DNA from: Bradyrhizobium roseum
GTDB taxonomy: Bacteria > Pseudomonadota > Alphaproteobacteria > Rhizobiales > Xanthobacteraceae
Direction of reading: 5' to 3'
Length of the DNA: 64,000 bases
NCBI RefSeq assembly: GCF_030413175.1
Contig: NZ_CP129212.1
Span: forward strand, 2,108,001-2,172,000
The number at the start of each line of letters is the position of its first letter. Positions within the stretch are counted from its first letter, which is position 1. The notes below the pieces were generated by a model, which had not been told where the DNA came from, ran no database searches, and was given only the letters and a program-made list of their open reading frames with translations. Below, one piece after another: positions 24,527-45,524 of this stretch. Made by a program: the position numbers and the translations under genes.

Positions 24527-24559
24527 TGCCGCCAGAAGCCCGGCGTGAACAACCCGATG

Positions 24560-25849: not shown

Positions 25850-26800
25850 ATGCAATCGCCAGAACAATCAGTCGTCGTCAAAGAACGATCTCACCACGCC
25901 GCTTCGCGCGCAGTGGACAAGCTGCGTAATCAGATAGCCTGCAATCACGATCTCGCTTTCCTGATGGAAGCCCACGACGGTCTGTCGGGCGCCATCGCCG
26001 AGCGGGCCGGGTTCAAGGGGCTCTGGGCGTCCGGCCTTTCCATTTCTTGTTCGCTCGGCTACCGCGACGCCAATGAAGCCTCCTGGACCGAACTCGTCGA
26101 TGTCGTCGAGCGCATGGTGGACTCGACCGATCTTCCGGTGCTTGTCGACGGCGATAGCGGCTTCGGCAATTTCAACAATGCACGCCTTCTCGCGCGCAAG
26201 CTGCAGCAGCGGGGCGCTGCAGGTGTCGCACTGGAAGACAAGGGTTTTCCCAAGATGAATTCGTTCGTCGGCGATCGGCATCCGTTGGCCGATACCGACG
26301 AATTCTCCGGCCGGCTGCGTGCCGTAAAAGACACGGTCGGCGATGATCTGTTGCTCATCGCGCGGATCGAGGCGCTGATCGCCGGCCACGGAATGGACGA
26401 GGCGCTCGCGCGCGCCCATGCCTATGCCGATGCAGGAGCCGACGCCATCCTGATCCATTCGCGCAAGAGCGTGGCGGACGAAATTCTCGATTTCGCCGCC
26501 GCCTGGCAGAACCGGCTTCCTGTCGTGATCGTCCCCACCAAATACTATCGAACGCCCGTTTCCGCCTATCGCGAAGCCGGTATCTCGACAGTGATCTGGG
26601 CCAACCATTCGATGCGCGCGGCCATCGCCGGGATGAGTGACATTTGCGGCCGCATTCTTGCCGAGGAAAGCATCGCCGGCATCGAAGGTGACGTCGCTAC
26701 GCTCGACGAAGTGTTTGGGCTGTTGCGGTACGGTGAACTCGCTGCCGCGGAGGAGCGATACTTGCCGACGCACAATGGAAATGGTCACGCGAAGGCGTGA
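25850..26800 (+). CDS. aepX: Phosphoenolpyruvate phosphomutase
   Basis: PEP mutase rearranges phosphoenolpyruvate to phosphonopyruvate, forming the C-P bond that starts almost all phosphonate biosynthesis. The 316-residue protein belongs to the isocitrate-lyase superfamily and shows LWASGLSISCSLGYRD, the metal-site DGDSGFGNFNN (residues 100-110), and the diagnostic EDKGFPKMNS (129-138). Asn137 matches the asparagine of true mutases; phosphonopyruvate hydrolases carry threonine there. The ATG at 25850 sits six bases after GAGGAG; a TTG two codons earlier is less likely. It is the first gene of a five-gene operon. Equilibrium favours PEP, so the downstream decarboxylase is needed to pull the reaction, and that gene is present. 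Confidence 0.93.
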   Translation: MQSPEQSVVVKERSHHAASRAVDKLRNQIACNHDLAFLMEAHDGLSGAIAERAGFKGLWASGLSISCSLGYRDANEASWTELVDVVERMVDSTDLPVLVDGDSGFGNFNNARLLARKLQQRGAAGVALEDKGFPKMNSFVGDRHPLADTDEFSGRLRAVKDTVGDDLLLIARIEALIAGHGMDEALARAHAYADAGADAILIHSRKSVADEILDFAAAWQNRLPVVIVPTKYYRTPVSAYREAGISTVIWANHSMRAAIAGMSDICGRILAEESIAGIEGDVATLDEVFGLLRYGELAAAEERYLPTHNGNGHAKA

Positions 26801-26861
26801 TCGTCACGCCCTCCATACAAGAGCATCCCGATAGAAACGTTCCCAACCAGGAGATCATGCC

Positions 26862-27938
26862 ATGCTTCAATCGACACTCGCTGCGTCAATCCCAAATCAG
26901 CTGCCTGAACCCGACATCGCGCAGGTGATCCGATGGCGCGATAGTTCCTATGCGGCCGACCTTTATATCGCGGCGGTCTCGTGGCTTGATCTATTCACCT
27001 ATCTCGATGCGACCCCTACCACCGAAGCAGAGCTGCGCCTGCATTTTCAGATCAAGGAGCGGCCGACACGAACGATGATCAGGCTCTTCGAGTCCTGGGG
27101 GCTGCTCGCCAACGTCGATGGCAAGCTTCTCGTTACGGCGTCCGCGCGGCGGTACCTGAGCCGCAGCTCGAGCGAGAACGTTTCCTCCTACATTGCCACC
27201 ATGAAGTACAAATCGTCGGTCCGGGAGATCTACGACGTATTGCGCAAAGGGGCGCCTGACACGTGGCACGTCGAGCGTGGCGACACGACCAACTGGGACG
27301 CGCTCATGCAAACGGACGATTTCGCCGATCTGAATACGCAAGGCATGGAGGAGCGCGGGCGGATTTTTGCTCCCGATCTGGCGCGCCTGCTCGATTGCGC
27401 GCATGACACGGCCGTTCTGGATGTGGGGGGTGGATCCGGGGTCTATTCAGCGCACCTGATCAACCGGTATCCCAATCTGTCGGCGACGATATTCGAGCGT
27501 CCCCCGGTCGACCAACTTGCCATGCAATGCCTTGCCGAACGTAAGCTGACCGAGCCGAGAGCGCGGGTGATTGCCGGGGATATGTTTGTCGATCCGTTTC
27601 CGCAGACCGCTTCTCTTCACCTCTATTCGCATGTCCTTCACAATTGGGGACCGGAAAAGGTGCAGCTGTTGCTGGAAAAATCCTATCAAAGTTTGCTGCC
27701 CGGCGGCCGGGTGGCGGTTTACAGCTGCCACCCCGACGACCGCGGCGGGCGTTCTGCACCGGTCGCGGAGGCGGAATATTCGGTGCTGCTGACGACCGGC
27801 TATGAGGGCTGCTGCTACAGTTTCGAAGACATGCGCTCCCTGATGGAAGGCGCGGGCTTTGCACACGTCGACTATCGCAAGTCGATCTGCAACCGGAGCC
27901 TCATCACGGCGCGAAAGCTCGCCGGCAACCCCAACTGA
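26862..27938 (+). CDS. SAM-dependent O-methyltransferase-like protein of the phosphonate operon
   Basis: This 358-residue protein has the architecture of plant/antibiotic-type O-methyltransferases (acetylserotonin OMT or DmpM-like): an N-terminal winged-helix dimerisation region (about residues 30-110, with LRLHFQIKERPTRTMIRLFESWGLL) and a C-terminal Rossmann domain with the SAM motif VLDVGGGSGVYS (about 185-196) and an acidic strand end (IFERPP). The later HVLHNWGPEKVQLLLEKSYQSLLPGG block holds the catalytic-region histidine of the family. AGGAG lies upstream of the ATG. Lying between PEP mutase and phosphonopyruvate decarboxylase, it probably methylates a phosphonate or its carboxylate, but the substrate is unknown. 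Confidence 0.85.
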   Translation: MLQSTLAASIPNQLPEPDIAQVIRWRDSSYAADLYIAAVSWLDLFTYLDATPTTEAELRLHFQIKERPTRTMIRLFESWGLLANVDGKLLVTASARRYLSRSSSENVSSYIATMKYKSSVREIYDVLRKGAPDTWHVERGDTTNWDALMQTDDFADLNTQGMEERGRIFAPDLARLLDCAHDTAVLDVGGGSGVYSAHLINRYPNLSATIFERPPVDQLAMQCLAERKLTEPRARVIAGDMFVDPFPQTASLHLYSHVLHNWGPEKVQLLLEKSYQSLLPGGRVAVYSCHPDDRGGRSAPVAEAEYSVLLTTGYEGCCYSFEDMRSLMEGAGFAHVDYRKSICNRSLITARKLAGNPN

Positions 27939-27990
27939 ACGAGAACTACATACAGGCAGCATCGCTGGTCGAAAGCGTCCTGCCCGATCC

Positions 27991-28016
27991 TGCTGCCGTC
28001 GATGCCGACGGCAGCA
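27991..28016 (+). terminator. Perfect 10-bp hairpin between methyltransferase and decarboxylase genes
   Basis: TGCTGCCGTC and GACGGCAGCA form a perfect 10-bp GC-rich stem with a six-base loop, in a 135-base gap inside an otherwise tight operon. No T-run follows, so it is not a classical intrinsic terminator. It could be an RNA-stability element, an attenuator or a partial terminator that sets different levels for upstream and downstream genes. Confidence 0.55.
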
Positions 28017-28073
28017 AACGCTGCGCCTTGTCTGGCGCTGGAAGCACAATATTGCCTTCGGGGAGAAGCTGAA

Positions 28074-29240
28074 ATGACCATGTCGACATCGACACTCCTG
28101 AGTCTTCTGAAACAGCAGAAATATGGTTTTTTTTCCGGGGTGCCTTGCTCAAATTTCGCCGATCTTTTCCAGCAGGTATCCTTGGACAACGATATCGCAT
28201 CGGTCCCGGCGGCGAGCGAGGGCAGCGCGTTGTCATTCGCCGTCGGCGCGGCACTGGCGGGACGACGAAGCGTCGTGGCCCTGCAGAATTCCGGGCTGGG
28301 AAACATCATCAATCCGCTGACATCGCTGGTCCAGATCAACTGTATTCCGACGCTGCTTCTGATTTCCGTGCGGGGACATACCGACGAAGCCGAGGACGAG
28401 CCGCAGCATCGCATCATGGGTGCAAATACCCATGCATTGCTCGATCAATTGGCAATTCCGTGGAGCGAGTTCGACGGGACGCCGCAGGGGTTCATGGCGG
28501 CCCTCCTGAAGGCCGAAGAGGCATTCGGGCGATCGGTCTCGTTTGCGGTCCTGGTCCGGAAAGGTCAGCTGTCGGCGGGCCTCGGCGTCGTTGGCGACCG
28601 CGAACTGCAAGTGGACGGCTATCCACTCAGCGTCGGAAGTGCTCTGGAGATCGTTAGCGAAGCCCTGCGAACTAGCGATCTCGTTGTTTCAACGACCGGG
28701 TTCATTTCCCGCGAGCTATTTCGCGTGAGCGACCGTCCGGAGAATTTCTACATGCAGGGATCGTTGGGCCATTGCAGCGCGGTCGCTGCAGGCGTCGCGC
28801 TCGCGCATCCATCGCGCCGCGTGGTTGCGCTGGATGGCGACGGCGCCGTGCTGATGCATATGGGCGTGTTGTCCACAATCGGCTACGCTGCTCCCCGGAA
28901 TTTCCTGCATATCGTGCTCGATAACGAAGGTTACGTTTCAACCGGGAAGCAGGAATCCACCTCGGTGACCTCGTCGCTGGAAGCCGTTGCCGCAGCCTGT
29001 GGATACCGCGCGGTCAGCCGGTGCGTAACCAAAGCCGAATTGGATGACGCTGTTGCGCGAAGCTTGGCGAGCGAAGGGCCGCACTTCCTGTTGTGCAAGG
29101 TCAATCAATCCCATTCGCGTTCGCTTCCCCGGGTTACGTCCCAGCATACCCCAGAGGAGAACAAGCGCGCGTTCCAGATCGCAGTAAGCCGGCCCTCGGG
29201 CGGCGATCTGCAGGCGGTGCCGGCAGGAGCGGTCCGGTGA
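28074..29240 (+). CDS. aepY: Phosphonopyruvate decarboxylase
   Basis: AepY (Ppd) decarboxylates phosphonopyruvate to phosphonoacetaldehyde with thiamine diphosphate and Mg2+, making C-P bond formation irreversible. The 388-residue protein shows SGVPCS (residues 21-26), Glu49 in the ASEGSA helix, the hallmark QNSGLGN (71-77) followed by NPLTSL, the EDEPQHRIMG stretch, and the C-terminal cofactor motif LDGDGAVLMHMG with DNEGYVSTG. ATG 28074 has a GGGGAGA Shine-Dalgarno seven bases upstream; the open frame further upstream covers the hairpin and is not coding. A GTGA overlap couples it to the transporter gene. Confidence 0.93.
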   Translation: MTMSTSTLLSLLKQQKYGFFSGVPCSNFADLFQQVSLDNDIASVPAASEGSALSFAVGAALAGRRSVVALQNSGLGNIINPLTSLVQINCIPTLLLISVRGHTDEAEDEPQHRIMGANTHALLDQLAIPWSEFDGTPQGFMAALLKAEEAFGRSVSFAVLVRKGQLSAGLGVVGDRELQVDGYPLSVGSALEIVSEALRTSDLVVSTTGFISRELFRVSDRPENFYMQGSLGHCSAVAAGVALAHPSRRVVALDGDGAVLMHMGVLSTIGYAAPRNFLHIVLDNEGYVSTGKQESTSVTSSLEAVAAACGYRAVSRCVTKAELDDAVARSLASEGPHFLLCKVNQSHSRSLPRVTSQHTPEENKRAFQIAVSRPSGGDLQAVPAGAVR

Positions 29241-30139
29241 AGACGTCAGCGGTCAATGTGATCGGGCTTCTTTGCCTTTCGTTCGTCGTCGTCATCTGGG
29301 GCACAAATTGGCTTGTGATCAAGGATGCCCTGCATTCTTCGCCGCCGCTGTTGTTTACCGGCATCCGTTTGCTGGGCGGCGCCATCGCGATCGGAGCTGC
29401 GCGGCTGTGCCTTGGATACCGGCTCCGGCTCGGTTGTGACGGGAAGGGCAGGCTGGTTGCGGTGGGTCTACTGCAGATGGCTGGAGGCCTCGGCCTTAGC
29501 CTGGCGGGCTTGCAGTATCTCGACGTGGGCACCAGCGCCCTGATTTTCTATACGATGCCGCTGTGGCTCGTTGTGATTGAATGGGCGATCGACCGGCAGA
29601 AGCAATCGCTGCTCGATGTTATCGCGCTGACCTGTGGCATGCTTGGTCTCGGGCTGCTGGCCTCGGGTGCTGCGCCGGTGGCGACATCCCATGGGATCCT
29701 GGGCGTCGCATTGCTTTCGATGGCGGCGTTCAGCTGGGCGCTCGGAACATGGGTCCACAAACGCGCTCCCGGCGACGGCGACGTGTGGAGCCGGACCATC
29801 TTTCAGTTGGCGACCTCGGGCGTCGTCGTCATCGTTGCTTCGCTGCTGCTGGAACGTCGGCTTGAGTGGACGCAATTGCCAATTCTGGCCTGGCCTATTG
29901 CATTCAACTGCATCGTAGCGACTGGGTTGGCGTTCGTCGCCTGGTATCGCGCGCTCAGTTCCGTTTCCACGCAGATCGCATCCCAGAGCCTCGTGCTGAT
30001 CCCGGTCGTCGCACTGGTTGCGGCCGCCGTGTTGCAACAGCAGGCTCCAACGGCCCGCGTCTTGCTCGCCTGTGTCCTCATCATCGTCGGTGTCACCATC
30101 GCGATCTGGCATGCTGGCCAAAGGACCCGATCGCTGTGA
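29237..30139 (+). CDS. EamA/DMT-family transporter, putative exporter of the phosphonate product
   Basis: This 300-residue protein has about ten hydrophobic helices in two EamA repeats, as in drug/metabolite transporters (RhaT/YdcZ-type). The first helix includes VIWGTNWLVIKDAL, a family-typical start. The GTG start overlaps the aepY stop (GTGA), so it is coupled to phosphonate synthesis. Members of the family are often exporters of amino acids or metabolites; export of the operon product is inferred from location. No soluble binding protein accompanies it. Confidence 0.85.
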   Translation: MKTSAVNVIGLLCLSFVVVIWGTNWLVIKDALHSSPPLLFTGIRLLGGAIAIGAARLCLGYRLRLGCDGKGRLVAVGLLQMAGGLGLSLAGLQYLDVGTSALIFYTMPLWLVVIEWAIDRQKQSLLDVIALTCGMLGLGLLASGAAPVATSHGILGVALLSMAAFSWALGTWVHKRAPGDGDVWSRTIFQLATSGVVVIVASLLLERRLEWTQLPILAWPIAFNCIVATGLAFVAWYRALSSVSTQIASQSLVLIPVVALVAAAVLQQQAPTARVLLACVLIIVGVTIAIWHAGQRTRSL

Positions 30140-30195
30140 GTGTCTGCGCGCCCGGAAACCTGAGATCGGAACAGAACACTGCGTGGAGCCCGGCG

Positions 30196-31632
30196 ATGCT
30201 GGATTCGACCCCTCCATTTCATCCAATGAAGATCGCTGGAGCGGATGTCTTTGCGGATTCGAGGATCGACGTTCGCAATCCGTTTACTGGTGAGGTCATC
30301 GCCGCAGTGCCGCAGGCGCGTCCCGATCAAGTTCGGCGCGCCTTCGCGATCGCCCGGGGATTTCGTTCCAGGCTCACAAGGCGTGAACGGGCGCGGATCC
30401 TGTTCGCTACAGCCCAGGCAATCGAAGCAAACCGGGATCAGCTCGCGCATCTCATCACGTCGGAGAGCGGGCTATGCCTGAAAGACTCGCTGCATGAAAC
30501 GGCGCGGGCCAGGGATGTCTGGTCATTCGCATCGCAGGCCGTGCTCCAGGACGATGGTGCGATGTACGCGGGCGATATCGGGGGGAGCGCGCAGAGCAGG
30601 CGCATCTTCGCAACCAGGACGCCGCTCCTTGGCGTCATTTCGGCGATTACCCCCTTCAATCATCCCCTGAACCTCGTCAGCCACAAGCTCGCTCCGGCGA
30701 TTGCGACAAACAACAGGGTCGTGCTTAAGCCGGCCGAGGCGACCCCTTTGACCGCGCTTGCGCTTGCCGAACTGCTTTATGAGGCGGGACTGCCGCCGGA
30801 AATGTTGTCGGTGGTCACTGGTGAACCGCGTTCGCTCGGAGACGCGATGATCAATGACCCGGACATCGACCTGGTGACGTTTACGGGATCGGTGGGTGCC
30901 GGAAAGAAGATTGCCGAGCGGGTGGGATACAGAAGGCTGGTGCTCGAGCTTGGCGGGAATGATCCCCTGATCGTCATGGGCGACGCCGATCTCGACCGCG
31001 CAGCCCGATTGGCGGTGCAGGGCGCGACGAAAAATTCCGGACAACGCTGTACCGCCGTCAAGCGGGTTTTGGTCATCGAGGATGTCGCCGATCGCTTTGC
31101 CGAAGCGACTCTCTCTCTGATGAAGCGTCTCAAGACCGGAGATCCGATGGATCCCGACACGGATGTGGGGACGGTTATCAACGCGAGGGCGGCGTCGACC
31201 ATTGCCGGACGCGTCAAAGCCGCAATTGAAGGCGGCGCCCGCCTGCTGCTCGGCAATACGCCCAAAGGCGCGCTTTACCCGCCAACGATGCTCGACCATG
31301 TTGCGGCCGATTGCGAGCTGGTGCGTGAAGAGACCTTTGGTCCTGTCCTGCCGATCATTCGCTGCCCGGATGACGTCGAACAGATTATCTCCATGGCGAA
31401 TTCGACGGCCTTCGGTCTCTCGGCCGGATTGTGCACCAACAGACTCGACACCATCACCCGCTTTGTCGATGGCCTCGACGTCGGCTGCGTCAATGTGTGG
31501 GAGGTTCCGGGATATCGGACCGAGCTGACGCCGTTCGGCGGCATCAAGGATTCCGGCCTCGGCCACAAAGAGGGCGTGCTGGAGGCCATGAAGTGCTTCA
31601 CCAATATCAAAACCTATTCGCTGCCGTCGTGA
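30196..31632 (+). CDS. phnY: Phosphonoacetaldehyde dehydrogenase (aldehyde dehydrogenase superfamily)
   Basis: This 478-residue NAD(P)-dependent aldehyde dehydrogenase resembles the enzymes that oxidise phosphonoacetaldehyde to phosphonoacetate. The catalytic residues are visible: Glu251 in LELGGNDP and Cys285 in NSGQRCTAVK, with the cofactor-binding ITPFNHPLNL and FTGSVGAGK. Start choice: ATG 30196 has GGAG about seven bases upstream; ATG 30226 is an alternative, and the longer open frame from 29866 runs inside the transporter gene. Placed after aepX and aepY, and with a phosphonoacetate hydrolase downstream, the substrate assignment is well supported by context, less by residues alone. Confidence 0.88.
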   Translation: MLDSTPPFHPMKIAGADVFADSRIDVRNPFTGEVIAAVPQARPDQVRRAFAIARGFRSRLTRRERARILFATAQAIEANRDQLAHLITSESGLCLKDSLHETARARDVWSFASQAVLQDDGAMYAGDIGGSAQSRRIFATRTPLLGVISAITPFNHPLNLVSHKLAPAIATNNRVVLKPAEATPLTALALAELLYEAGLPPEMLSVVTGEPRSLGDAMINDPDIDLVTFTGSVGAGKKIAERVGYRRLVLELGGNDPLIVMGDADLDRAARLAVQGATKNSGQRCTAVKRVLVIEDVADRFAEATLSLMKRLKTGDPMDPDTDVGTVINARAASTIAGRVKAAIEGGARLLLGNTPKGALYPPTMLDHVAADCELVREETFGPVLPIIRCPDDVEQIISMANSTAFGLSAGLCTNRLDTITRFVDGLDVGCVNVWEVPGYRTELTPFGGIKDSGLGHKEGVLEAMKCFTNIKTYSLPS

Positions 31633-31640
31633 AGCAAACC

Positions 31641-32621
31641 TCAATCCAGCAGTTTGGATGCGGCCGCTTCATCGGTGACCAGCACTTGGGCAAATCCAGC
31701 CAACAGGCCGGCGCGAATAATCGGAACCTTGTGCTCGCCGCCGGCGGCGAGAATCCGATGTCTGATCTGAAGCACGTGGTCGATCGGCGGATGGATCGTC
31801 CGCTGCACCAGCGGATGGTGAAGCGGCTTGCCTGACGAATCGAGGTAGTGACCGCAAATATCCCCGACCGCGCCGGCTTTCAGCAGCGAGGTCCAGCTTT
31901 CGCGGGAAATGACGTCGTATTCGAGCGCCTTTGATTGTTCGGAGAGGTCGATCGCGCTCAACAAGGCGACGTCGAGGGAGGGCACCATGGCGAGCACCGA
32001 TCGAACCGGCTCGCTCGCGATCAGGATATCCCTCAGCTCGGCAGTCTCGGCGTACATCGGCGCGGTCAGATAATAGCATCGCGCGCCGAGCGCCCGGGCA
32101 ATCATGGTTGCATTGTCATACGGATTGATCGGCGCGCTTTCGGCCAGCCCTCCGGTCAACAGCACCACGCGGGTGCCGTCGCCAGATCGCTGCGGCAGGT
32201 TTTGAGCCGCGGCATTGATGGTGCCGCCCCAGGTGATTCCCAGTGAACCCGACGGCGGAAGGCACTCGGCGACGTATCGTGCGGCGGCGGCGCCGATGAA
32301 AGAACGCACCTCGGTGCTGCCCATCGGGACCGGGACCACGATCGCGTGACGCAGACTAAATTTGTGGATGAGCGCTTCTTCAAGCTCGGTGCGTTGGCCC
32401 GCCGGATCGGCAATCGTGATTTGAACGAAGCCGCTTTCCCGGGCGTCACCGAGGATCCGGTTGACGCGCTTGCGGGTCATCTTCAGCCGCTGCGCGATCG
32501 CATCCTGCGTTTGGCCCTCTCTGAAATAGTACCAGCAGATTTTGGCCACCAAGGCGGCGTCGGCCCGGCCATCGCCGGTTTCGCCTTCGTTTAGTGCCAT
32601 TTGCGGGCCTCGAATCAGCAC
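31641..32621 (-). CDS. SorC/DeoR-type sugar-binding-domain transcriptional regulator
   Basis: This 326-residue regulator has an N-terminal helix-turn-helix (ICWYYFREGQTQDAIAQRL then KMTRKRVNRIL, about residues 28-60) and a C-terminal SorC-type effector domain related to sugar isomerases, with ITWGGTINAAAQNLPQ and GEHKVPIIRAGLL. The GTG at 32621 has a perfect GGAGG seven bases upstream; ATG 32600 also has a GAGG and is an alternative. It converges with the phosphonate biosynthesis operon (8-base gap) and diverges from the uptake/hydrolysis operon, so it probably controls one or both. A phosphorylated or phosphonylated small molecule would suit the effector domain, but that is inference. Confidence 0.88.
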   Translation of the reverse strand: MLIRGPQMALNEGETGDGRADAALVAKICWYYFREGQTQDAIAQRLKMTRKRVNRILGDARESGFVQITIADPAGQRTELEEALIHKFSLRHAIVVPVPMGSTEVRSFIGAAAARYVAECLPPSGSLGITWGGTINAAAQNLPQRSGDGTRVVLLTGGLAESAPINPYDNATMIARALGARCYYLTAPMYAETAELRDILIASEPVRSVLAMVPSLDVALLSAIDLSEQSKALEYDVISRESWTSLLKAGAVGDICGHYLDSSGKPLHHPLVQRTIHPPIDHVLQIRHRILAAGGEHKVPIIRAGLLAGFAQVLVTDEAAASKLLD

Positions 32622-32786: not shown

Positions 32787-33989
32787 GTGCGTCGGCTGAT
32801 CATCGCGTCACTACTGCTATGCGGAGGGGCAACGCCCTCCCTCGCGCAATTTTCCGACAACAAGATCATCATCGGTGTGATGGGCGATCAAAGCGGCGTT
32901 GTCGCCGATGTCGGCGGGCCCGGATCGATCCTGGCGGCCCGGATGGCGGTCGAGGATTCGGGCGGAAACGCCAGCGGCGTCCCCATCGAGATCATCACGG
33001 CCGACCATCAGAACAAGCCCGACGTGGCGTCGGCGATTGCCCGTGAATGGTTCGACCGGCGCGGCGTCGACGTTATCGCCGACCTGCCGCATTCCGGCGT
33101 GGTCTTCGGGTTGATGGCGATTGCCAACGAGAAAAAGCGTTCCCTGATGATATCGGGCGCCGCCAGCGTGGAGATCACCGGGGGGCGCTGCTCGCCGTTT
33201 GCCACTCACTGGACGGATGACACCTACGCGCTGGCGCGCGGGACCGGTGTCGCCCTGATGCAGCAGGACCTGAAGTCCTGGTATTTTCTCACGGCTGACT
33301 ATGCTTTCGGCCACGATCTCGAAAAGGACGCCGCGCGCGTCGTCGAGGAACGTGGAGGCAAGGTAGCCGGAAGCGCCCGCCACCCGTTGAGCACGGCCGA
33401 TTTCTCCGCACTGCTGCTGCGCGCGAAATCCTCGCAGGCGCAGGTCGTTGCACTGGCGAGTGCCGGTGCCGACACTGTCAACGCCATCAAGCAGGCCGGC
33501 CAGTTCGGGATCATGCGCGGCGGCCAGCGCGTCGCGGCGCTCCACGCCTTCGTTACCGACATCAATAGCGTTGGCCTTGAAGCGGCGCAGGGCCTGATCA
33601 TCACCACCGGCTTCTACTGGAACGATACCGATGGGACTCGTTCCTTCGCAGAGCGCTTTTTCAAGGCCCATGGCCGCATGCCTACCCGTGAGCAGGCCGG
33701 CGTCTATACCAGCGTGCGGCACTACATCAAGGCTGCCGGTGCAGCGAAGACTGACGATGCAGCTGTCGTGAACACGGAGATGCGAAAGCTGCCCGTCGAT
33801 AAATTCGGCCGGCAGGTCCGTATCCAGGAAAACGGCCGTGTCATCTACGATCTCGGTGTCTATCGGGTGAAGCCCCCGGCCGAGAGCAAGGCGCCGTGGG
33901 ACTATTACGAGCGCATCGCCACGGTCCAGGCTGACACCGCCTTTCGCTCGCTCGATACCGCGGGCTGCGCCGCTCCGGGCGTTCGATGA
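32787..33989 (+). CDS. Branched-chain-amino-acid-type ABC substrate-binding protein
   Basis: This 400-residue type I periplasmic binding protein (LivJ-like, Peripla_BP_6) begins with a clear signal peptide (RRLIIASLLLCGGATPSLA, cleavage near residue 21). Family features are KIIIGVMGDQSG, GGPGSILAARMAVEDSGG, and a mid-chain YFLTADYAFGHDLE. The GTG at 32787 sits six bases after AGGAGA. It is the first gene of the uptake operon and overlaps the ATPase gene. Liv-type systems carry amino acids, amides, urea or aromatic acids; the adjoining phosphonoacetate hydrolase and amidase suggest an acyl or amide phosphonate here, unproven. Confidence 0.9.
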   Translation: MRRLIIASLLLCGGATPSLAQFSDNKIIIGVMGDQSGVVADVGGPGSILAARMAVEDSGGNASGVPIEIITADHQNKPDVASAIAREWFDRRGVDVIADLPHSGVVFGLMAIANEKKRSLMISGAASVEITGGRCSPFATHWTDDTYALARGTGVALMQQDLKSWYFLTADYAFGHDLEKDAARVVEERGGKVAGSARHPLSTADFSALLLRAKSSQAQVVALASAGADTVNAIKQAGQFGIMRGGQRVAALHAFVTDINSVGLEAAQGLIITTGFYWNDTDGTRSFAERFFKAHGRMPTREQAGVYTSVRHYIKAAGAAKTDDAAVVNTEMRKLPVDKFGRQVRIQENGRVIYDLGVYRVKPPAESKAPWDYYERIATVQADTAFRSLDTAGCAAPGVR

Positions 33990-35510: not shown

Positions 35511-35517
35511 TTCCCGC

Positions 35518-37422
35518 ATGATGGACCTCATCCTCGGCTACCTGACGATAGGCCTCGTCAACGGCTCGTTCTACGCGCTGCTCAGTCTCGGACTGGCGCT
35601 GATCTTCGGCCTTCTCAACATCCTCAACATGACGCATGGCGTGCTCTACATGATGGGCGCCTTTGCTGCATGGGCCGGTTCGCGATACCTCGGATTGGGC
35701 TATTTCGGAGGGCTGGTTTTTGCGCCGGTCTGCGTAGCTCTTTTCGGCATGATGCTCGAACGCTTGTTGTTGCGTCGAACCTACGGCCTCGATCCGCTGT
35801 ACGGATTCATGCTGACGTTCGGCGCGGCGATGGTCGTTCAGGGAGGTTTCCAGGCCTATTTCGGTTCGACCGGACTACCCTACGCCGCGCCGGATTGGCT
35901 ATCCGGCGGGCTGGATCTTGGCTTCCTGTATTTTCCGGCCTATCGGCTTTGGGTCGTCGCCGTAGCGCTGGTCGTATGCGTGATCGTATGGATCGCGATT
36001 GCGCGCACGCGGCTTGGCTCGGTCCTGCGCGCCTCGTCCGAAAATGCAGCAACGGCTGAGGCGCTCGGCGTCGGCGTGCCTCATGTTTTCGCTGCCACTT
36101 TTGCCCTCGGCGCCGCCTTGGCGGGATTGGCAGGCGCGCTGGCGGCGCCGATCTACCAGGTCTCACCGCTGATGGGCTCGGACATCCTGCTCGTCGTGTT
36201 TGCAATCATCGTCATCGGCGGCATGGGTTCGATCGGCGGAACCATCGTCTCGAGCTACGCGCTCGCGATGATCGAAAGCCTGACGCAAGCGCTGGTCCCG
36301 CAGGCGGCAAGCTTCATCGTCTTCGCCTTCATGTGCCTCGTGCTGTTGCTGCGGCCGCAGGGGTTGTTTGGCATTTCGGTGGTCCGATCCCATGAATTCC
36401 TGGCGGCGCGGCTGCCATGGATCGAGCCCGCAGATAAGGCAACCGCCGCCAAACGCCTGACCGGCATGGTGCCGGTGCTGGCCGCCGTCGTCGCGCTATT
36501 CGCGCTGCCGATGCTGCTTTATCCCGTCTATCTGATGAAGATCTTCTGCTTCACCATCTTCGCCGCTTCATTCAATTTCCTGCTGGGCTATGCCGGCATC
36601 ATGTCCTTTGGTCAGGCGGCGCTATTCGGCACGGCGGCCTATTTCACAGCGCATGCGGCAAGGGAGTGGGCGTTGCCGCCGGAAGCCGCGATCGGCGTCG
36701 GGATAGCGGCGGCGCTCGTTCTGGGGCTCGTCATGGGCATCTTTGCGATCAGGCGCCGGGGCATCTATCAGGCGATGATCACGCTGGCGATCGCGCAGAT
36801 GGTCTATTTCGTCTATGTGCAGGCCAGCTTCACCCATGGCGAGGATGGCATTCAGTCAGTTCCCCGCGGCATGTTGCTGGGGTTGATTGACCTTCGCAAC
36901 GACACCAACGTTTACTGGCTCTGCGCCGCAGCCATGCTCGGCGTGCTGTTCGGCCTTCGCCGTCTGATCAATTCCCCGTTCGGGATGATGCTGATCGCGA
37001 TTCGCGATAATGAACGCCGGGCCCTGTCGCTGGGGCACAATGTCGACGCCTACAAGCTCGCTGCATTCGGCGTCGCGGCGCTCTGCGCCGGCGTCGCCGG
37101 CGCCATGAGTGCCGTCGTGTTCCAGTTGGCCACCTTGTCCGGCGTGCATTGGCATCTTTCAGGCGAAGCCGTGCTGATGGCGTTGATCGGTGGCATCGGC
37201 ACATTTGCCGGGCCGCTCGTCGGCGCCACCGTGCTGGTGACGATGCAGCATTTTCTGTCGCCCTTCGGTGCCTGGATCGTGGCAATTCAGGGCGTCGTCT
37301 TTGTTCTTTGCGTCCTGCTGTTTCGCGATGGCTTGTTGCCGCATGCCCAGGCGCTCGCCGCAAGCCTTCGCAGTTGCGTAACGCGCAGGCCCGCGCGGAC
37401 CACGGAGGCCGTCTCCCCATGA
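35518..37422 (+). CDS. Fused LivH-LivM permease of a branched-chain-type ABC importer
   Basis: This 634-residue membrane protein joins two permease domains that are normally separate: a LivH-like half (residues 1 to about 290, starting LGYLTIGLVNGSFYALLSLG and with IGGMGSIGGTIVSSY) and a LivM-like half (from about 320, with FAASFNFLLGYAGIMSFGQAALFG and GGIGTFAGPLVGA). Roughly 16 hydrophobic helices are visible. ATG 35518 (with a second ATG next to it) follows the LivF stop by seven bases. The single-chain permease is a natural fusion, also known in some proteobacterial Liv-like systems. The stop overlaps the amidase start (ATGA). Confidence 0.9.
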   Translation: MMDLILGYLTIGLVNGSFYALLSLGLALIFGLLNILNMTHGVLYMMGAFAAWAGSRYLGLGYFGGLVFAPVCVALFGMMLERLLLRRTYGLDPLYGFMLTFGAAMVVQGGFQAYFGSTGLPYAAPDWLSGGLDLGFLYFPAYRLWVVAVALVVCVIVWIAIARTRLGSVLRASSENAATAEALGVGVPHVFAATFALGAALAGLAGALAAPIYQVSPLMGSDILLVVFAIIVIGGMGSIGGTIVSSYALAMIESLTQALVPQAASFIVFAFMCLVLLLRPQGLFGISVVRSHEFLAARLPWIEPADKATAAKRLTGMVPVLAAVVALFALPMLLYPVYLMKIFCFTIFAASFNFLLGYAGIMSFGQAALFGTAAYFTAHAAREWALPPEAAIGVGIAAALVLGLVMGIFAIRRRGIYQAMITLAIAQMVYFVYVQASFTHGEDGIQSVPRGMLLGLIDLRNDTNVYWLCAAAMLGVLFGLRRLINSPFGMMLIAIRDNERRALSLGHNVDAYKLAAFGVAALCAGVAGAMSAVVFQLATLSGVHWHLSGEAVLMALIGGIGTFAGPLVGATVLVTMQHFLSPFGAWIVAIQGVVFVLCVLLFRDGLLPHAQALAASLRSCVTRRPARTTEAVSP

Positions 37423-38768
37423 ACGTGATATCAGGTGCCCTGGAGCTTGCTCTGTACAGCAAGCCATTGACCGAATTGCCGGCCCGCACCATCGTCAGGG
37501 CGATCCGCGATCGTCGGCTGACGGCGGCATCGGTGATGGAAGCCTGCCTGGAGCGCATTGCCGCGCGCGAACCCGAGGTGAAGGCCTGGAGTTTCCTCGA
37601 TGCCGATCTGGCGCGCGAACGCGCGTGGCAGGCGGACAAGTGGCAGGCCGCGGGATTTCCACTCACCCCGCTGCATGGCTTGCCGGTCGGCGTAAAGGAC
37701 GTGTTCGATACCAGCGACATGCCGTCCGAATACGGCAGCGCAAGTTTGCGTGGACGCAGGCCAACCGAAGACGCTGATGCGGTAAGCGTGCTGCTCGGAG
37801 CCGGGGCGCTCATCATCGGCAAGACCAGCACGTCCGAATTCGGGATGTATCATCCCAGTCCGACCCATAACCCTTTGGACCTGTCGCGCTCGCCCGGCGT
37901 GTCGTCGGCGGGATCTGCGGCGGCGGTGGTCGACAACATGGTTCCGCTAGCGCTCGGCACGCAGCACACGGCATCCACGACGCTGCCGGCGTCCTTCTGC
38001 GGCGCGTTTGCGTTCAAACCATCGTTCGGCTTCACGAGCATGCGGGGATCCAATGTGCTCGTGCCGCGCATGGCGCATATCGGCCTGTTGGCCCGGTCGG
38101 TCGATGACCTCGCGCTGTTTGCCGGAGCCTTCGATGGTCGGCTCGGCGAGCTCGAGGCAATCCCGCATCCGCCGAGGCTCGGTCTGGTCTGCGGGCCGGG
38201 CTGGGAGATGGCAAGTGATGCTGCACGGGAGGCCCTCGATCGCCTGGTTGCCGGATTGCCTGCGACAGTGGCCGCCGTCGAACTGCCTTCTGACTTCGAC
38301 AGGGCGATCGAGATCGTGCACGGCCTTCTGAACGCACATCTGGCGTATCGCTTCGGCCTCTCGCCGCCGGAAACGTTCCGCAATTTCTGCGCGCCGCTGC
38401 AGCAAGGCATCATCGCCGGCCGCGAATTGAGCGCTATGGATTATCTCAAACTCGAGGCTATGGCCGACCGCCTATCGGCTCACGCTGCGCGGTTGTTTCT
38501 CGATCATGATGTCTTGATCACGCTCTCCGCGCCGGGGGAAGCCACACGTCTTGAAGACGGCCCGGGCTCGGGCGTCATGTCCATGCCCTGGAGCCTGTGC
38601 GGACTGCCGACCATGTCGCTGCCGCTGCTGCGCGGCGCGAACGGCCTGCCGATCGGCGTTCAACTCATTGGCCGGCGGGGCGGCGACCGCAACCTCCTGC
38701 GCGTAGCGGCGTGGTTTACCGATGCAACAATAATCCTCAAACATGTGTCTTCCCATGAACAAGCTTGA
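37419..38768 (+). CDS. Amidase-signature-family hydrolase
   Basis: This 449-residue enzyme belongs to the amidase signature family (Ser-cisSer-Lys triad). The catalytic lysine lies in LPVGVKDVFDT and the serine-rich region reads SPGVSSAGSAAAVV, with the nucleophile position in TQHTASTTLPASF. The usual DTGGSIR around the nucleophile is replaced by QHTASTT; the serine is kept but the oxyanion-hole glycines are altered. It is coupled to the Liv-type permease and overlaps phnA, so it may release phosphonoacetate or ammonia from an imported amide. The actual substrate is unknown. Confidence 0.88.
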   Translation: MNVISGALELALYSKPLTELPARTIVRAIRDRRLTAASVMEACLERIAAREPEVKAWSFLDADLARERAWQADKWQAAGFPLTPLHGLPVGVKDVFDTSDMPSEYGSASLRGRRPTEDADAVSVLLGAGALIIGKTSTSEFGMYHPSPTHNPLDLSRSPGVSSAGSAAAVVDNMVPLALGTQHTASTTLPASFCGAFAFKPSFGFTSMRGSNVLVPRMAHIGLLARSVDDLALFAGAFDGRLGELEAIPHPPRLGLVCGPGWEMASDAAREALDRLVAGLPATVAAVELPSDFDRAIEIVHGLLNAHLAYRFGLSPPETFRNFCAPLQQGIIAGRELSAMDYLKLEAMADRLSAHAARLFLDHDVLITLSAPGEATRLEDGPGSGVMSMPWSLCGLPTMSLPLLRGANGLPIGVQLIGRRGGDRNLLRVAAWFTDATIILKHVSSHEQA

Positions 38769-40047: not shown

Positions 40048-40049
40048 CC

Positions 40050-41336
40050 ATGCCTCGTGCTATACTTGTCATCCTCGATGGTCTGCGCCGTGATCTCGTC
40101 ACGCCGGAGACCACGCCCCGTCTTGCCGCCTTTGCCGCGCGCTCCGAACAGTTCGCTGCCCATCGCACGGTGTTTCCCTCCTGCACGCGGGTGGTCTCGG
40201 CGAGCTTGGCGACCGGTTGTTATCCGGCGCGCCACGGCCTGCAAGGCAATACGATGGCGCTCATGGAAGACGGGCGCCTGGTTCGCCACGATGCAGGCCG
40301 TCCCGATTTCCTTCAGCATAAGCGGCGCGTCACCGGTCGCTCGCTGGCCGTGCCGACCCTGGCGGAGCGGTTGACGGGTAGCGGCGGCGCCATCATCTTC
40401 AGCAACGTTTCGCCGGGAGCGGCCTACGCGCACGATCCGGACGGGTTTGGTCGGGTCTATCATCGTGCAGGATCATTCGGCCGCGACCGGGTGCCGCTTC
40501 CCGAGGACGAGCAACTTCGCGTCACGCTGGATGTCGAAGGCGACCGGGCGATGACCGAGCGCTTCATCCGCGAAGCAATACTGCCCGAGGCCAATCCGCC
40601 TGCGCTTGCGGTCCTGTGGCTGGGCGAGCCGGACGCCACGCAGCACGCCTTGCCCATGGGCTCGCCAGGTCATCTTGCGGTGTTGGCGGAGGCCGACGGC
40701 AATGCCGGACGCGTCATGGATGCCGTAGGGACGCTCGACGACAAGGACGATGTTCTGCTGCTGATAGGATCGGATCATGGCCACCAGACGGTTACCGGCG
40801 TCGTCGACATCGATGAAGAACTCGTCGCCGCCGGATTGAAGGAAAGCCTCGAATCGACCGACGTGGTTGTCGCCTCGAACGGCACTTCGGCCTTGCTGTA
40901 CGTCCATCCTGACTTCGGTGCCCGTACGTCGCTGGTCGGCGACTTCCTGGCCAATCAGGCATGGGCGGAGACCGTCTTTGACGGTAGCGGGCTGGCGTCG
41001 GTCGGGCAAAGGCGGGACCACGGCCTCGCTTTCGCGGTCTCGATGCGCGCGAGCAACGAACCCAACGCCTACGGCGTGGTCGGTACCAGCCTCGTCGCGG
41101 AGCGCGCCGGCAACAAGGCGGATGTTCTTGGTAGCGGCCAGCACGGTGGCCTGGGTGCAGGGGAGCAGTCGCCCTTCCTGATGATCGACGGTGCGGGCTT
41201 TTGCCCTGGCGCTGCGAGGCAGGAGCCCTCCTGCATCACTGACATTGCGCCGACCATTCTCGCGCATCTCGGGCTTCCCGCGTCCGGAATGGATGGGCGT
41301 CCGCTGCAGGCCGCGCCGGGAGGCCGCAATGGCTGA
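40050..41336 (+). CDS. Alkaline-phosphatase-superfamily hydrolase (phosphodiesterase/nucleotide pyrophosphatase-like)
   Basis: This 428-residue protein is a second alkaline-phosphatase-superfamily enzyme next to PhnA, two bases downstream of it. It keeps the metal and nucleophile set: Asp10 in VILDGLRRD, Thr46 in FPSCTRVVS, then EPDATQH, GSDHGHQ and SGQHGG. The position usually occupied by Asn three residues after the nucleophile in PhnA and NPP enzymes is valine here, so the specificity probably differs. Phosphonate ester or phosphodiester cleavage is likely from family and context; the substrate is not determined. No signal peptide is seen, so it acts in the cytoplasm. The stop overlaps the ABC ATPase start. 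Confidence 0.85.
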   Translation: MPRAILVILDGLRRDLVTPETTPRLAAFAARSEQFAAHRTVFPSCTRVVSASLATGCYPARHGLQGNTMALMEDGRLVRHDAGRPDFLQHKRRVTGRSLAVPTLAERLTGSGGAIIFSNVSPGAAYAHDPDGFGRVYHRAGSFGRDRVPLPEDEQLRVTLDVEGDRAMTERFIREAILPEANPPALAVLWLGEPDATQHALPMGSPGHLAVLAEADGNAGRVMDAVGTLDDKDDVLLLIGSDHGHQTVTGVVDIDEELVAAGLKESLESTDVVVASNGTSALLYVHPDFGARTSLVGDFLANQAWAETVFDGSGLASVGQRRDHGLAFAVSMRASNEPNAYGVVGTSLVAERAGNKADVLGSGQHGGLGAGEQSPFLMIDGAGFCPGAARQEPSCITDIAPTILAHLGLPASGMDGRPLQAAPGGRNG

Positions 41337-42450
41337 GATCGAACTGCGCCGCATCGAGAAGAGCTACGGCGAAACCGCCGTTGTGAGGGACGTGTCGCTG
41401 AGCATTCGCAGCGGCGAGTTTCTGACCCTGGTCGGCCCCTCCGGATGCGGAAAGTCGACCTTGTTGCGGATCATTGCCGGGCTTGAGGCGCAGGATAGCG
41501 GCGAGGTCGTGGTGGCTGGCCGCTGCGTGGACGACAAGCGTCCCAAGGAGCGCGATGTCGCCATGGTGTTCCAGTCTTATGCGCTCTATCCGCATCTGAG
41601 CGTGTTCGACAATCTGGCTTTGCCACTGCGGACGCGGCGTCTGAGCTTTGCGCAACGGCTGCCATTTGTCGGCCGCGCATTGCCGGGACGCAACGGCGTG
41701 GAAACGACGATCCGCGCTGAGGTCGAGCAGGCAGCTTCCATGCTCGACATCGCCCATCTGCTACACCGCAAGCCGGGCCAGCTATCCGGCGGCCAGCGCC
41801 AGCGTGTCGCGCTGGGCCGCGCGATGGTGCGGCATCCCGCGGTGTTTTTGATGGACGAGCCGCTGTCCAACCTCGACGCCAAGTTGCGGGTGCAGATGCG
41901 CGCCGAAATCACCGCACTGCATCGCCGTCTGGGCGTGACCTTCGTCTACGTCACCCACGATCAGGCGGAGGCGATGACGATGTCGGACCGCGTCGCCGTG
42001 ATGACATCGGGCGAACTGCTTCAGGTCGACAAGCCGGAGCAGCTCTATCGCGACCCACAGGAACTCCGGGTAGCCGAGATGATCGGCAGCCCGAAGATCA
42101 ATGTGGTCTCTTGCGCCGATTGGACCTCTCTCGGTGCGTCACTTCCGCCAGGTGTTCATGACGACACGGCGCACCTTGCGTTTCGTCCAGAGGCCATCGG
42201 GATAACCGCACCCGGGGATCGAAGGCTCAATGGCGTCGTCGCCAGCATCGAGAATCTCGGCTCAGATATATTTGTGAACGTGGCGCTTGGCGATGACCGC
42301 GGCACCGTCGTCGTGCGCACCCACCCGGAGTGGCCGCGTCCCGAACCGGGCCGTCCGGTCGGCCTTCAACTCGAGCCGGCGTGCTTGCTGCAATTCGACA
42401 GCGCCGGGATGCGACTGCGCCGGGCCGAGCAGGTGGAGGCCGCGGCGTGA
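41329..42450 (+). CDS. ABC transporter ATP-binding protein, UgpC/MalK type
   Basis: This 373-residue CUT1-type ATPase has Walker A GPSGCGKST, signature LSGGQRQRV, Walker B FLMDEPLSNLDAKLR, the switch region VTHDQAEAMTMSDRV, and a C-terminal OB/TOBE domain (from about residue 240). A region around residues 105-130 (TRRLSFAQRLPFVGRALPGRN) is longer than usual. It energises the two permeases and the binding protein that follow. UgpC-type transporters of glycerol-3-phosphate are the closest functional idea in a phosphonate cluster, but sugar import cannot be excluded. Confidence 0.9.
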   Translation: MAEIELRRIEKSYGETAVVRDVSLSIRSGEFLTLVGPSGCGKSTLLRIIAGLEAQDSGEVVVAGRCVDDKRPKERDVAMVFQSYALYPHLSVFDNLALPLRTRRLSFAQRLPFVGRALPGRNGVETTIRAEVEQAASMLDIAHLLHRKPGQLSGGQRQRVALGRAMVRHPAVFLMDEPLSNLDAKLRVQMRAEITALHRRLGVTFVYVTHDQAEAMTMSDRVAVMTSGELLQVDKPEQLYRDPQELRVAEMIGSPKINVVSCADWTSLGASLPPGVHDDTAHLAFRPEAIGITAPGDRRLNGVVASIENLGSDIFVNVALGDDRGTVVVRTHPEWPRPEPGRPVGLQLEPACLLQFDSAGMRLRRAEQVEAAA

Positions 42451-44218: not shown

Positions 44219-44237
44219 CCCAAAATGGAGATCGTCC

Positions 44238-45524
44238 GTGCTTGATCAAATCATATCGCGGCTGGGTTTGGCGCTTGCCGGCGCTGCCCTGATGGCCATC
44301 AGCGTGACCACCGCGCGCGCGGAAGTCACGCTCGACGTGCTCTACACCACTCCAGGTACCTTCAATGCGCTGCATCAGGAATTGGCCAGGCGCTTCACCG
44401 AAGCGAACCCGGAAATCAAGGTGAAATTCCGCAATCCGGCCGCGAGCTACGAGGAAGCCGCGCAGCAGATCCTGCGCGACCAGATCACCGGCCGCTTGCC
44501 CGATGTGGCGTTCAATGGGATCAACCAGATCGGCCTGTTCGTTGATCGAGGACTGGGTGCGCCGCTGGATGGGTTTGTCGCCAGAGATGGCGGGCTCGCC
44601 GAACTCGGCTATTACCCGACGCTTGCAGAACTCGGAAAGCACAAGGGCAAGCTCTACGGGCTGCCATTCGCCGTCTCGACCCCGGTGCTCTACGTCAATG
44701 CCGATCTGCTGGCCAAAGCCGGCAGCGATGTATCCGCTCTTCCGAAAACGTGGCCAGAGCTGCTGGCTCTCGGTAAGAACGTCGAGGTGAAGGCGGGCAC
44801 CGGCACGACCGGCCTCTACTATCAGTGGGAGCAAACCGGAAACTGGCTGTTTCAGTCGCTGGTGACAAGCAAGGGCGGCCGTATTCTCAAGCCTGACGGG
44901 TGCAGCATCGCCTTCGACGACGCAAACGGCATGTGGGCGCTGAAGACGCTGGAAGGCTTTGGCAAGTCGGGCATGCCGAATCTCGGCCTCGGTCAAGCCC
45001 GGCAGTCATTCGTCGCCGGCAATATTGCGATCCTGGCGGACTCTACGTCCTATGTGGCGGCAGCCGAGCGGCAGATCGGCGGCCGATTCCAGTTCAAGAC
45101 CGTTGCCTTTCCGCTTGCCGCCACCGAAGGGCGTCTTCCCGCAGGAGGCAATGTCGCCATGGTCTTCTCGAAGGATGCCGAACGCCAAAGGGCTGCCTGG
45201 CAATATGTAAAGTTCGTCACCGGGCCGGTCGGCCAGACCGCGATGGTCAATTTGACCGGATATATGCCCGGCAACGAGATCGCCGTGAAGACGCCGGACC
45301 TGCTGGGCGCCTTCTATGCAAAGGCCCCGAACCATGTGACCAGCATCCAGCAACTGCCGGTGCTGACGGAATGGACATCCTTTCCGGGCGACAATTCGCT
45401 GAAGATTATCGAGGTGATAAAGCACCACGTCGAAGGCCTGGTGACGGGCAAGCGTACGGCGGAGCAGGTCATGCCCGAGGTGGTTCGAGATGTCTCCAGC
45501 CTTCTTCCAAAGTGCGGTGGCTGA
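44238..45524 (+). CDS. ABC substrate-binding protein, UgpB/family 1 type
   Basis: This 428-residue family 1 extracellular solute-binding protein starts at GTG 44238 (GGAG seven bases upstream) and has a signal peptide ending near VTTARA/EVTL. Visible family features are LARRFTEANPEIKVKF, GRLPDVAFNG, and the aromatic-rich TGLYYQWEQTGNWLFQS. It is the last gene of the uptake/hydrolysis operon. By analogy with UgpB it could bind a glycerol-phosphate or phosphonate-like ligand, but nothing in the sequence proves it. Confidence 0.9.
   Translation: MLDQIISRLGLALAGAALMAISVTTARAEVTLDVLYTTPGTFNALHQELARRFTEANPEIKVKFRNPAASYEEAAQQILRDQITGRLPDVAFNGINQIGLFVDRGLGAPLDGFVARDGGLAELGYYPTLAELGKHKGKLYGLPFAVSTPVLYVNADLLAKAGSDVSALPKTWPELLALGKNVEVKAGTGTTGLYYQWEQTGNWLFQSLVTSKGGRILKPDGCSIAFDDANGMWALKTLEGFGKSGMPNLGLGQARQSFVAGNIAILADSTSYVAAAERQIGGRFQFKTVAFPLAATEGRLPAGGNVAMVFSKDAERQRAAWQYVKFVTGPVGQTAMVNLTGYMPGNEIAVKTPDLLGAFYAKAPNHVTSIQQLPVLTEWTSFPGDNSLKIIEVIKHHVEGLVTGKRTAEQVMPEVVRDVSSLLPKCGG

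What the first reader, a model, noticed from the sequence alone, without database searches (positions are those of the whole stretch)
25850..45524. Two-sided phosphonate island: make-and-export operon plus import-and-hydrolyse operon around one SorC regulator
Seen directly: true-type PEP mutase (EDKGFPKMNS with Asn137), phosphonopyruvate decarboxylase (QNSGLGN, GDGA), an O-methyltransferase-like protein, an EamA transporter and a PhnY-like dehydrogenase lie in one operon. A SorC-type regulator follows, then a divergent operon with a Liv-type importer, amidase, PhnA with all zinc ligands, a second alkaline-phosphatase-superfamily hydrolase and a Ugp-type importer. Known: the encoded steps form PEP to phosphonopyruvate to phosphonoacetaldehyde to phosphonoacetate to acetate + Pi. 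Making and destroying phosphonoacetate in one genome locus would be futile unless the product is methylated or otherwise modified, exported, and later retrieved. I infer a secreted phosphonoacetate-derived metabolite (a public P store, signal or toxin) with a dedicated recovery and self-protection arm. I do not know of this exact combination as a described system.
Basis: partly seen in the sequence, partly recalled or inferred. Interest (0 to 1): 0.85.

Follow-up and report, generated by a model that had tools for sequence, protein, structure and literature searches.

The report
Make-and-recover phosphonoacetate gene island
A soil bacterium carries, side by side, genes that look built to make a carbon-phosphorus compound (a phosphonoacetate derivative) and genes that look built to take it back up and break it down, a pairing that may point to one natural source of phosphonoacetate.

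Summary
The window lies in a 7,319,411-bp Bradyrhizobium genome, the length published for B. roseus S12-14-2T. PepM, Ppd, PhnY and PhnA pass curated equivalog cut-offs. The island's eight-gene core recurs in 10 further genomes of the 195-genome genus sample, including a pair at 58-80% identity, with purifying selection on all 11 genes tested and unlike flanks where read. Each locus keeps Liv, Ugp or both importers. The second hydrolase (AlkP2) has the NPP P-O esterase fold and sits right behind PhnA in 12 of 66 PhnA places outside the genus, with Opp or TRAP carriers there. I read the recovery arm as uptake and de-esterification of a phosphonoacetate ester, then C-P cleavage. 'One SorC regulator' is half right: a conserved operator precedes the recovery operon in 11 of 11 island loci and PepM in none. 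Each arm also occurs without the other, so coupling is likely, not proven. The strain's synthesis genes are already in print, read as a hydroxyethylphosphonate route; in nine searches I found no description of the coupled island. Product, methylation site and export are inferred.

The parts
25844..26800 (+). PEP mutase (PepM), EDKGFPKMNS
   Evidence: TIGR02320 over cut-off; PDB 1m1b 327 bits
26862..27938 (+). O-methyltransferase (OMT), PF00891; SAM motif LDVGGGSG, H260 in 43 of 44 aligned relatives
   Evidence: AlphaFold model pLDDT 92.4, nearest solved fold 5i2h
28074..29240 (+). phosphonopyruvate decarboxylase (Ppd)
   Evidence: TIGR03297 over cut-off
29237..30139 (+). EamA-family transporter (export assumed, not shown)
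   Evidence: PF00892
30196..31632 (+). phosphonoacetaldehyde dehydrogenase (PhnY)
   Evidence: TIGR03250 over cut-off; 571 bits to 4i3t
31641..32621 (-). SorC-type regulator
   Evidence: PF04198
32726..32739 (+). conserved presumed SorC operator TCACAAATGTGTTA
32787..33989 (+). LivJ-type substrate-binding protein
   Evidence: PF13458
33986..34810 (+). LivG ATPase
   Evidence: PF00005
34800..35510 (+). LivF ATPase
   Evidence: PF00005
35518..37422 (+). LivH-LivM fused permease
   Evidence: PF02653, two stretches
37419..38768 (+). amidase-signature hydrolase
   Evidence: PF01425
38743..40047 (+). phosphonoacetate hydrolase (PhnA)
   Evidence: TIGR02335 over cut-off; 3szy 406 bits
40050..41336 (+). 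AlkP2, NPP-fold hydrolase (phosphodiester / phosphonate-ester activity inferred)
41329..42450 (+). UgpC ATPase
   Evidence: PF00005, PF08402
42447..43379 (+). UgpA permease
   Evidence: PF00528
43376..44218 (+). UgpE permease
   Evidence: PF00528
44238..45524 (+). UgpB substrate-binding protein
   Evidence: PF01547
24560..25459 (-). up2, unknown 299-aa protein divergent from PepM; in 15 of 195 genomes, 11 of them next to island PepM
23741..24526 (+). up1, unknown 261-aa protein of the upstream cassette
25754..25775 (+). conserved box CAACTAGAATTAGATATTGACG upstream of PepM

Best explanation
A two-arm island for a secreted and retrievable phosphonoacetate derivative. Synthesis arm: PepM turns PEP into phosphonopyruvate, Ppd pulls the reaction forward to phosphonoacetaldehyde, PhnY oxidises it to phosphonoacetate, OMT methylates an acid group (most likely a phosphonate oxygen, which would shield it from PhnA), and EamA exports it, possibly after a further conjugation. 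Recovery arm, under its own SorC repressor: an importer takes up the ester/amide, amidase and AlkP2 strip the carboxyl and P-O substituents, and PhnA splits phosphonoacetate to acetate and phosphate. The substituent keeps the two arms from forming a futile cycle; SorC opens the recovery arm only when a suitable ligand builds up inside. Shown by computation: gene identities, conservation, selection, operator position, AlkP2 fold, PhnA-AlkP2 pairing elsewhere. Inferred: every reaction in this strain, the product, methylation site, export, SorC as repressor and its ligand, timing.
For: Equivalog hits for all four pathway enzymes. PepM, OMT, Ppd, EamA, PhnY, SorC, PhnA and AlkP2 in 10 of 10 other island loci; Liv complete in 8, Ugp in 7, at least one in 10 of 10. 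Apart from an XRE-up1-up2 cassette, the window's flanking genes are not found in the flanks held of 14 loci, only weak paralogues. dN/dS 0.06-0.26 for 11 genes. In the OMT scan, Ppd follows OMT in 16 of 17 loci and PhnY is near in 15; the 17th is a 44-aa fragment. AlkP2 follows PhnA on the same strand in 13 of 87 PhnA loci mapped (3-57 bp between matches; 2 bp between the genes here), 12 of them outside the genus, with LysR and Opp genes by eye (L088, L091) or SorC, TRAP and amidase (L083, L100); no PhnY match of more than 120 aa lies within 3.5 kb of PhnA in these 13, so the entry point looks like phosphonoacetate, not 2-AEP. AlkP2 has the NPP fold and no KxK motif. In the AlkP2 tree starred branches force two changes between island and other loci: the G065/G167 pair groups with the LivJ-amidase-AlkP2 loci, the other nine with the AlkP2-Ugp loci, as if the function was refilled. 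A Hyphomicrobiales MAG has PepM-OMT-Ppd and SorC|PhnA-AlkP2-TRAP-amidase on two contigs.
Against: No product is known. OMT substrate and EamA direction cannot be tested here. No SorC site at PepM, so the arms are not co-controlled at this level. Each arm exists alone; AlkP2-importer modules without PhnA or PepM in the stretches held exist (6 loci), and AlkP2 relatives are abundant (2571 proteins at E<=1e-20), so AlkP2 may act on other organophosphates. The trio loci have synthesis genes without the recovery arm nearby. Three of 10 relatives have a broken gene (OMT L016, PhnA L021, amidase L015; draft contigs). A review names PhnWAY as a possible main natural route to phosphonoacetate (PMC10574752), so a dedicated producer is not needed to explain every PhnA.
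Confidence: 0.55

Rival explanations
1. Neighbours without teamwork: the recovery arm scavenges phosphonoacetate esters or other organophosphates made by others, and merely shares a genomic island with a phosphonate synthesis operon.
For: PhnA-AlkP2 pairs occur in 12 of 66 PhnA places outside the genus; 9 of these 12 genomes have no PepM match at E<=1e-60, G253 and G290 have a 40% match on another contig, and G265 is the MAG; AlkP2-importer modules without PhnA in 6 loci; separate control; trio without recovery arm.
Against: Linkage kept in all 11 carriers of the PepM-OMT-Ppd-EamA-PhnY operon found in the sample, across 58-80% divergence and different flanks; AlkP2 and importers exchanged in place rather than lost; both arms also in a MAG of another family.
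Confidence: 0.25
2. Self-protection: the recovery arm mainly destroys a toxic product that leaks back in.
For: PhnA and AlkP2 accompany the synthesis arm in 10 of 10 other loci.
Against: One or two importers are kept in every locus, the opposite of what pure protection needs; the trio loci lack the arm.
Confidence: 0.1
3. The published reading: the operon makes 2-hydroxyethylphosphonate and then methylphosphonate (B. roseus genome paper, Figure 6B legend).
For: PMC10708946 passages.
Against: The dehydrogenase passes the phosphonoacetaldehyde dehydrogenase equivalog and aligns to PDB 4i3t at 571 bits (that 4i3t is S. meliloti PhnY, which oxidises the aldehyde, is recalled); no methylphosphonate synthase or reductase family among the 20 gene products scanned by Pfam.
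Confidence: 0.03
4. Private phosphorus store: phosphonoacetate kept inside and released by PhnA when phosphate is short.
For: Making and breaking enzymes in one cell.
Against: Two importers and a transporter point outside the cell; no Pho-box-like site near the island (one 3-mismatch hit in the window, at 20668, 3.24 expected).
Confidence: 0.05

Closest known systems
PhnWAY / PhnY-PhnA hydrolytic 2-AEP catabolism
   Same: PhnY and PhnA enzymes and their reactions
   Different: No PhnW in the island; PhnY sits in the synthesis operon; PhnA is paired with AlkP2. In my map 61 of 87 PhnA loci are PhnA-PhnY; a published census gives 121 of 145 (PMC12366243, passages)
Pseudomonas fluorescens 23F phnA region (phosphonoacetate use, LysR-type PhnR)
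   Same: Substrate-specific use of exogenous phosphonoacetate (PMC10574752, passages)
   Different: There LysR and three putative transporter genes; here SorC, AlkP2, Liv/Ugp and a synthesis operon
Phosphonoacetate-derived natural product clusters of actinomycetes (O-phosphonoacetic acid serine; K. fiedleri cluster)
   Same: PepM, Ppd and an aldehyde dehydrogenase to phosphonoacetate (PMC12723261, passages)
   Different: No recovery arm in the passages seen; other tailoring genes
Fosfazinomycin / dehydrophos phosphonate methylation (recalled; one paper asked for was not held)
   Same: Methylation of a phosphonate as a pathway step (recalled)
   Different: Recalled enzymes FzmB and DhpI are of another methyltransferase type (recalled, not compared)
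Common Bradyrhizobium PepM loci (PepM, aminotransferase, PntC-like nucleotidyltransferase; names by eye)
   Same: PepM, and in several an NPP-like hydrolase (28-35%) nearby
   Different: PepM reads EDSC in 16 of 16 such loci with the motif; no intact OMT or PhnA-AlkP2 pair seen (L065 is a trio locus with OMT)

Membership tests
Phosphonate biosynthesis cluster (PepM + thermodynamic pull) | PepM with EDKxxxxxNS | tested here: met
Phosphonate biosynthesis cluster (PepM + thermodynamic pull) | Coupled exergonic step (Ppd) | tested here: met
   TIGR03297 over cut-off
Phosphonate biosynthesis cluster (PepM + thermodynamic pull) | C-P product detected | not testable with these tools
   needs 31P NMR
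Phosphonoacetate hydrolase PhnA | Equivalog score; AlkP metal-site motifs; two lysines for the leaving group | tested here: met
   that the lysines are those of TAKDKL is recalled
PhnWAY 2-AEP catabolism | PhnW (2-AEP transaminase) with PhnY-PhnA in one operon | tested here: not met
   no aminotransferase among the 20 gene products scanned by Pfam; PhnY and PhnA in different operons
PhnA-AlkP2-importer operon (named here) | AlkP2 immediately downstream of PhnA, same strand, importer in the operon, no PhnY | tested here: met
NPP (nucleotide pyrophosphatase/phosphodiesterase) family, for AlkP2 | NPP fold, Thr nucleophile, six metal ligands | tested here: met
NPP (nucleotide pyrophosphatase/phosphodiesterase) family, for AlkP2 | Hydrolysis of phosphonate monoesters | not testable with these tools
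   needs assay
Fosfazinomycin-type cluster | Hydrazine-forming genes and FzmB-type methyltransferase | not tested
   recalled features only

The most novel reading that the evidence does not exclude
Bradyrhizobium makes an exported phosphonoacetate ester, not yet recognised in these bacteria, and it or its neighbours harvest it with PhnA-AlkP2 operons that have been fitted with at least four unrelated importer types (Liv, Ugp, Opp, TRAP): a shared phosphonate economy in soil that would account for the phosphonoacetate hydrolase genes that stand without PhnY.
Probability: 0.3. Interest if true: 0.85.

Novelty: new variant of a known kind. Interest (0 to 1): 0.66.

Why it matters
A broad survey found that fewer than 1% of genomes hold both phosphonate production and consumption traits and spoke of mutual exclusivity (PMC8931226, section 6 read). 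Here both are locked into one island (in this genus co-presence at genome level is commoner: all 17 genomes tested have phnJ). A review and a 2025 paper treat a biogenic origin of phosphonoacetate as likely or presumed, with PhnWAY as one possible source (PMC10574752, PMC12366243, passages); this island names candidate dedicated producers, and PhnA-AlkP2 operons candidate consumers, both open to simple tests. It also questions a published pathway reading for this strain.

Tried and rejected
Shared SorC control of both arms: rejected on operator position; the operator in one window alone is not significant (1 hit at up to 3 mismatches, 1.13 expected), its weight comes from conservation. Pho control: one 3-mismatch site at 20668, 3.24 expected. 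Sigma-70 promoters and terminators in 25400-33000: 0 promoter-like against 2.2 expected, 3 terminator-like against 7.3, uninformative. Plasmid origin of OMT: only matches below 60% identity, in 120 plasmid records. Island throughout the order: rejected; PepM in 15 of 297, 13 of them outside the genus; of the 8 of those 13 loci that I read, one (the MAG) has OMT. PepM-PhnA linkage outside the genus: 10 of 25 PepM-positive genomes have PhnA, none seen on the same contig within 100 kb; several are drafts, and in the MAG G265 the two lie on different contigs, so linkage there is open. Single origin of all island genes: supported for PhnA and SorC, not for AlkP2 and PhnY (starred branches force two changes), open for PepM and Ppd (its printout was cut inside the AlkP2 tree, the four AlkP2-Ugp rows being known by elimination). 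G155, where PepM and PhnA lie about 13 kb apart, is an EDSC-type PepM near a PhnA-PhnY pair, not an island. A 71-aa PhnY-like match (39%) beside SorC in L083 was not resolved. up1/up2: no Pfam or NCBIfam family (up1 only DUF1248 at E 0.11); PDB sequence search gave nothing for up2 and one E 0.16 hit for up1; a second up1-up2 copy in this genome has no match to the island's phosphonate genes beside it, so they are kept out of the mechanism. Not in counts: the ten other island loci are not among the 87 PhnA loci; of the other genus PhnA loci only 20 were read there (L025, L050-L053, L150-L164).
Full report
OBSERVATION. The finding's genes are present as described. Pfam scans of 20 gene products between 23741 and 46697 and NCBIfam scans of 10 of them give PepM, Ppd, PhnY and PhnA above their curated equivalog cut-offs, an O-methyltransferase (PF00891), an EamA transporter, a SorC-type regulator, a complete Liv importer (LivH and LivM fused), an amidase, a second type I phosphodiesterase (AlkP2) and a complete Ugp importer. 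All ten junctions from LivJ to UgpB overlap or lie within 19 bp, so this looks like one operon; the synthesis operon PepM-OMT-Ppd-EamA-PhnY has gaps of -4 to 135 bp; PhnY and SorC are convergent, 8 bp apart; SorC and LivJ are divergent, 165 bp apart. The genome is a single 7,319,411-bp contig, the exact length published for Bradyrhizobium roseus S12-14-2T (PMC10708946, passages); the identity is inferred from length and from the genus of its relatives.

CONSERVATION. In a genus sample of 195 genomes PepM has a match in 91 and PhnA in 41 (E<=1e-40), AlkP2 in 36 (E<=1e-30). Without the island genomes PepM and PhnA co-occur at chance level (14 genomes, p 0.84). The island occurs in 10 other genomes: eight with core genes at 70-93% identity and two at 58-80%. 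PepM, OMT, Ppd, EamA, PhnY, SorC, PhnA and AlkP2 are in 10 of 10 (OMT broken in L016, PhnA in L021); Liv is complete in 8, amidase in 9 (split in L015), Ugp in 7 (in L022-L024 not found in the roughly 3.4 kb read beyond AlkP2); each locus keeps at least one importer. Named records of the island (9 of 17 loci) include strains STM 3843 and SRL28, B. hereditatis, B. retamae, B. lablabi, B. valentinum and B. aeschynomenes. Apart from an XRE-up1-up2 cassette upstream, the window's flanking genes are not found in the few kilobases of flank held for 14 loci, only weak paralogues. dN/dS (window against three or four loci) is 0.06-0.26 for all 11 genes tested.

THE TWO ARMS ARE SEPARABLE AND SEPARATELY CONTROLLED. 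A scan with the OMT profile found six further Bradyrhizobium loci with OMT-Ppd-PhnY and no EamA, SorC or PhnA match in the stretch held (L063, L064, L065, L067, L068, L069; some genes of L068 are broken; L065 and L068 have a distant AlkP2-like gene, 29-30%). Conversely AlkP2 with Ugp (L038-L041) and LivJ-amidase-AlkP2 (L042, L043), beside SorC, occur without a PepM or PhnA match in the stretch held (SorC is only a partial match in L038 and unmatched in L039). A 10-bp core CACAAATGTG lies between SorC and the recovery operon in 11 of 11 island loci (exact) and, within one mismatch, before AlkP2 or LivJ in 6 of 6 stand-alone loci. It is absent from the roughly 0.9-1 kb held upstream of PepM in the other island loci and from the window's PepM upstream region; there a different box, CAACTAGAATTAGATATTGACG (window 25754-25775), is conserved in the seven closer loci aligned (one mismatch in L021) and altered in L023 and L024 (10 upstream regions aligned, window included, L017 left out). 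So SorC most likely governs only uptake and breakdown.

EVOLUTION. Trees put the island PhnA and SorC each on one side of a supported branch. AlkP2 needs two changes: the nine-locus lineage groups (89/87, not starred) with the AlkP2-Ugp loci, the G065/G167 pair with the LivJ-amidase-AlkP2 loci (starred with L043). PhnY of G065/G167 is closer to the trio loci. I infer a synthesis operon that acquired a recovery arm whose hydrolase and importer were later exchanged in place. A Hyphomicrobiales MAG (G265) carries PepM-OMT-Ppd at a contig end and, on another contig, SorC|PhnA-AlkP2-TRAP-amidase, with operator-like ACAATTGT and ACAAATGT 21 bp apart between PhnA and SorC; the contigs are not joined, and binning errors are possible.

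LITERATURE. The strain's own paper lists pepM, ppd, 'pdh' and an O-methyltransferase and proposes HEP and methylphosphonate; 'phna' has no occurrence in its main text (passages). Producer-plus-consumer genomes were under 1% in a survey (PMC8931226, section 6); but all 17 Bradyrhizobium genomes I tested have the C-P lyase gene phnJ, so in this genus co-presence is not in itself rare. Phosphonoacetate as a biosynthetic branch point is known in actinomycetes (PMC12723261, passages). I found no paper on a PepM-PhnA island or a PhnA-AlkP2 operon in searches (listings, with passages of some papers) of an open-licence library that lacks most subscription papers.

VERDICT. Observation confirmed; interpretation partly supported. 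The strongest new points are the conserved coupling with exchangeable importers, the operator evidence for separate control, and the PhnA-AlkP2 pair. The weakest are the product and the role of OMT and EamA.

Noticed in passing
L025-L037, L048, L049, L065 (other Bradyrhizobium loci): The PepM-like protein common in the genus reads EDSCFPK.NS in 16 of 16 loci with the motif searched, against EDK in the island; it may have altered activity.
   Followed up: partly
L035-L037, L048, L049: These loci also carry an AlkP2-like hydrolase (28-32%) within about 10 kb of PepM; L037 shows, by eye, an Opp importer, a PhnF-like GntR and a PntC-like nucleotidyltransferase beside it.
   Followed up: partly
window 23054-25459; G000:C1:4636412-4637302 (L080): An XRE-up1-up2 cassette of unknown function sits next to the island; up1-up2 have a second copy elsewhere in the genome with a small gene between them. 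up2 is in 15 of 195 genomes, each with a PepM match on the same contig within about 26 kb; four of the 15 look like near-copies of one another.
   Followed up: partly
G000:C1:5800408-5801676 (L044): A second AlkP2-like gene (46%) beside a Dpp/Opp-type importer (by eye) in this genome; the match is reported with one stop codon inside.
   Followed up: no
window 25736-25775: A conserved box upstream of PepM with two TTAGATATT repeats 27 bp apart, probably the synthesis arm's own control site.
   Followed up: no
L016, L021, L015, G039:C2:329220-330106: Broken genes in relatives: OMT, PhnA, amidase and up2 each found in two pieces.
   Followed up: no
L050, L150-L152: PhnA followed by an MFS carrier with no PhnY or AlkP2 match nearby: another phosphonoacetate-use layout in the genus.
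   Followed up: no
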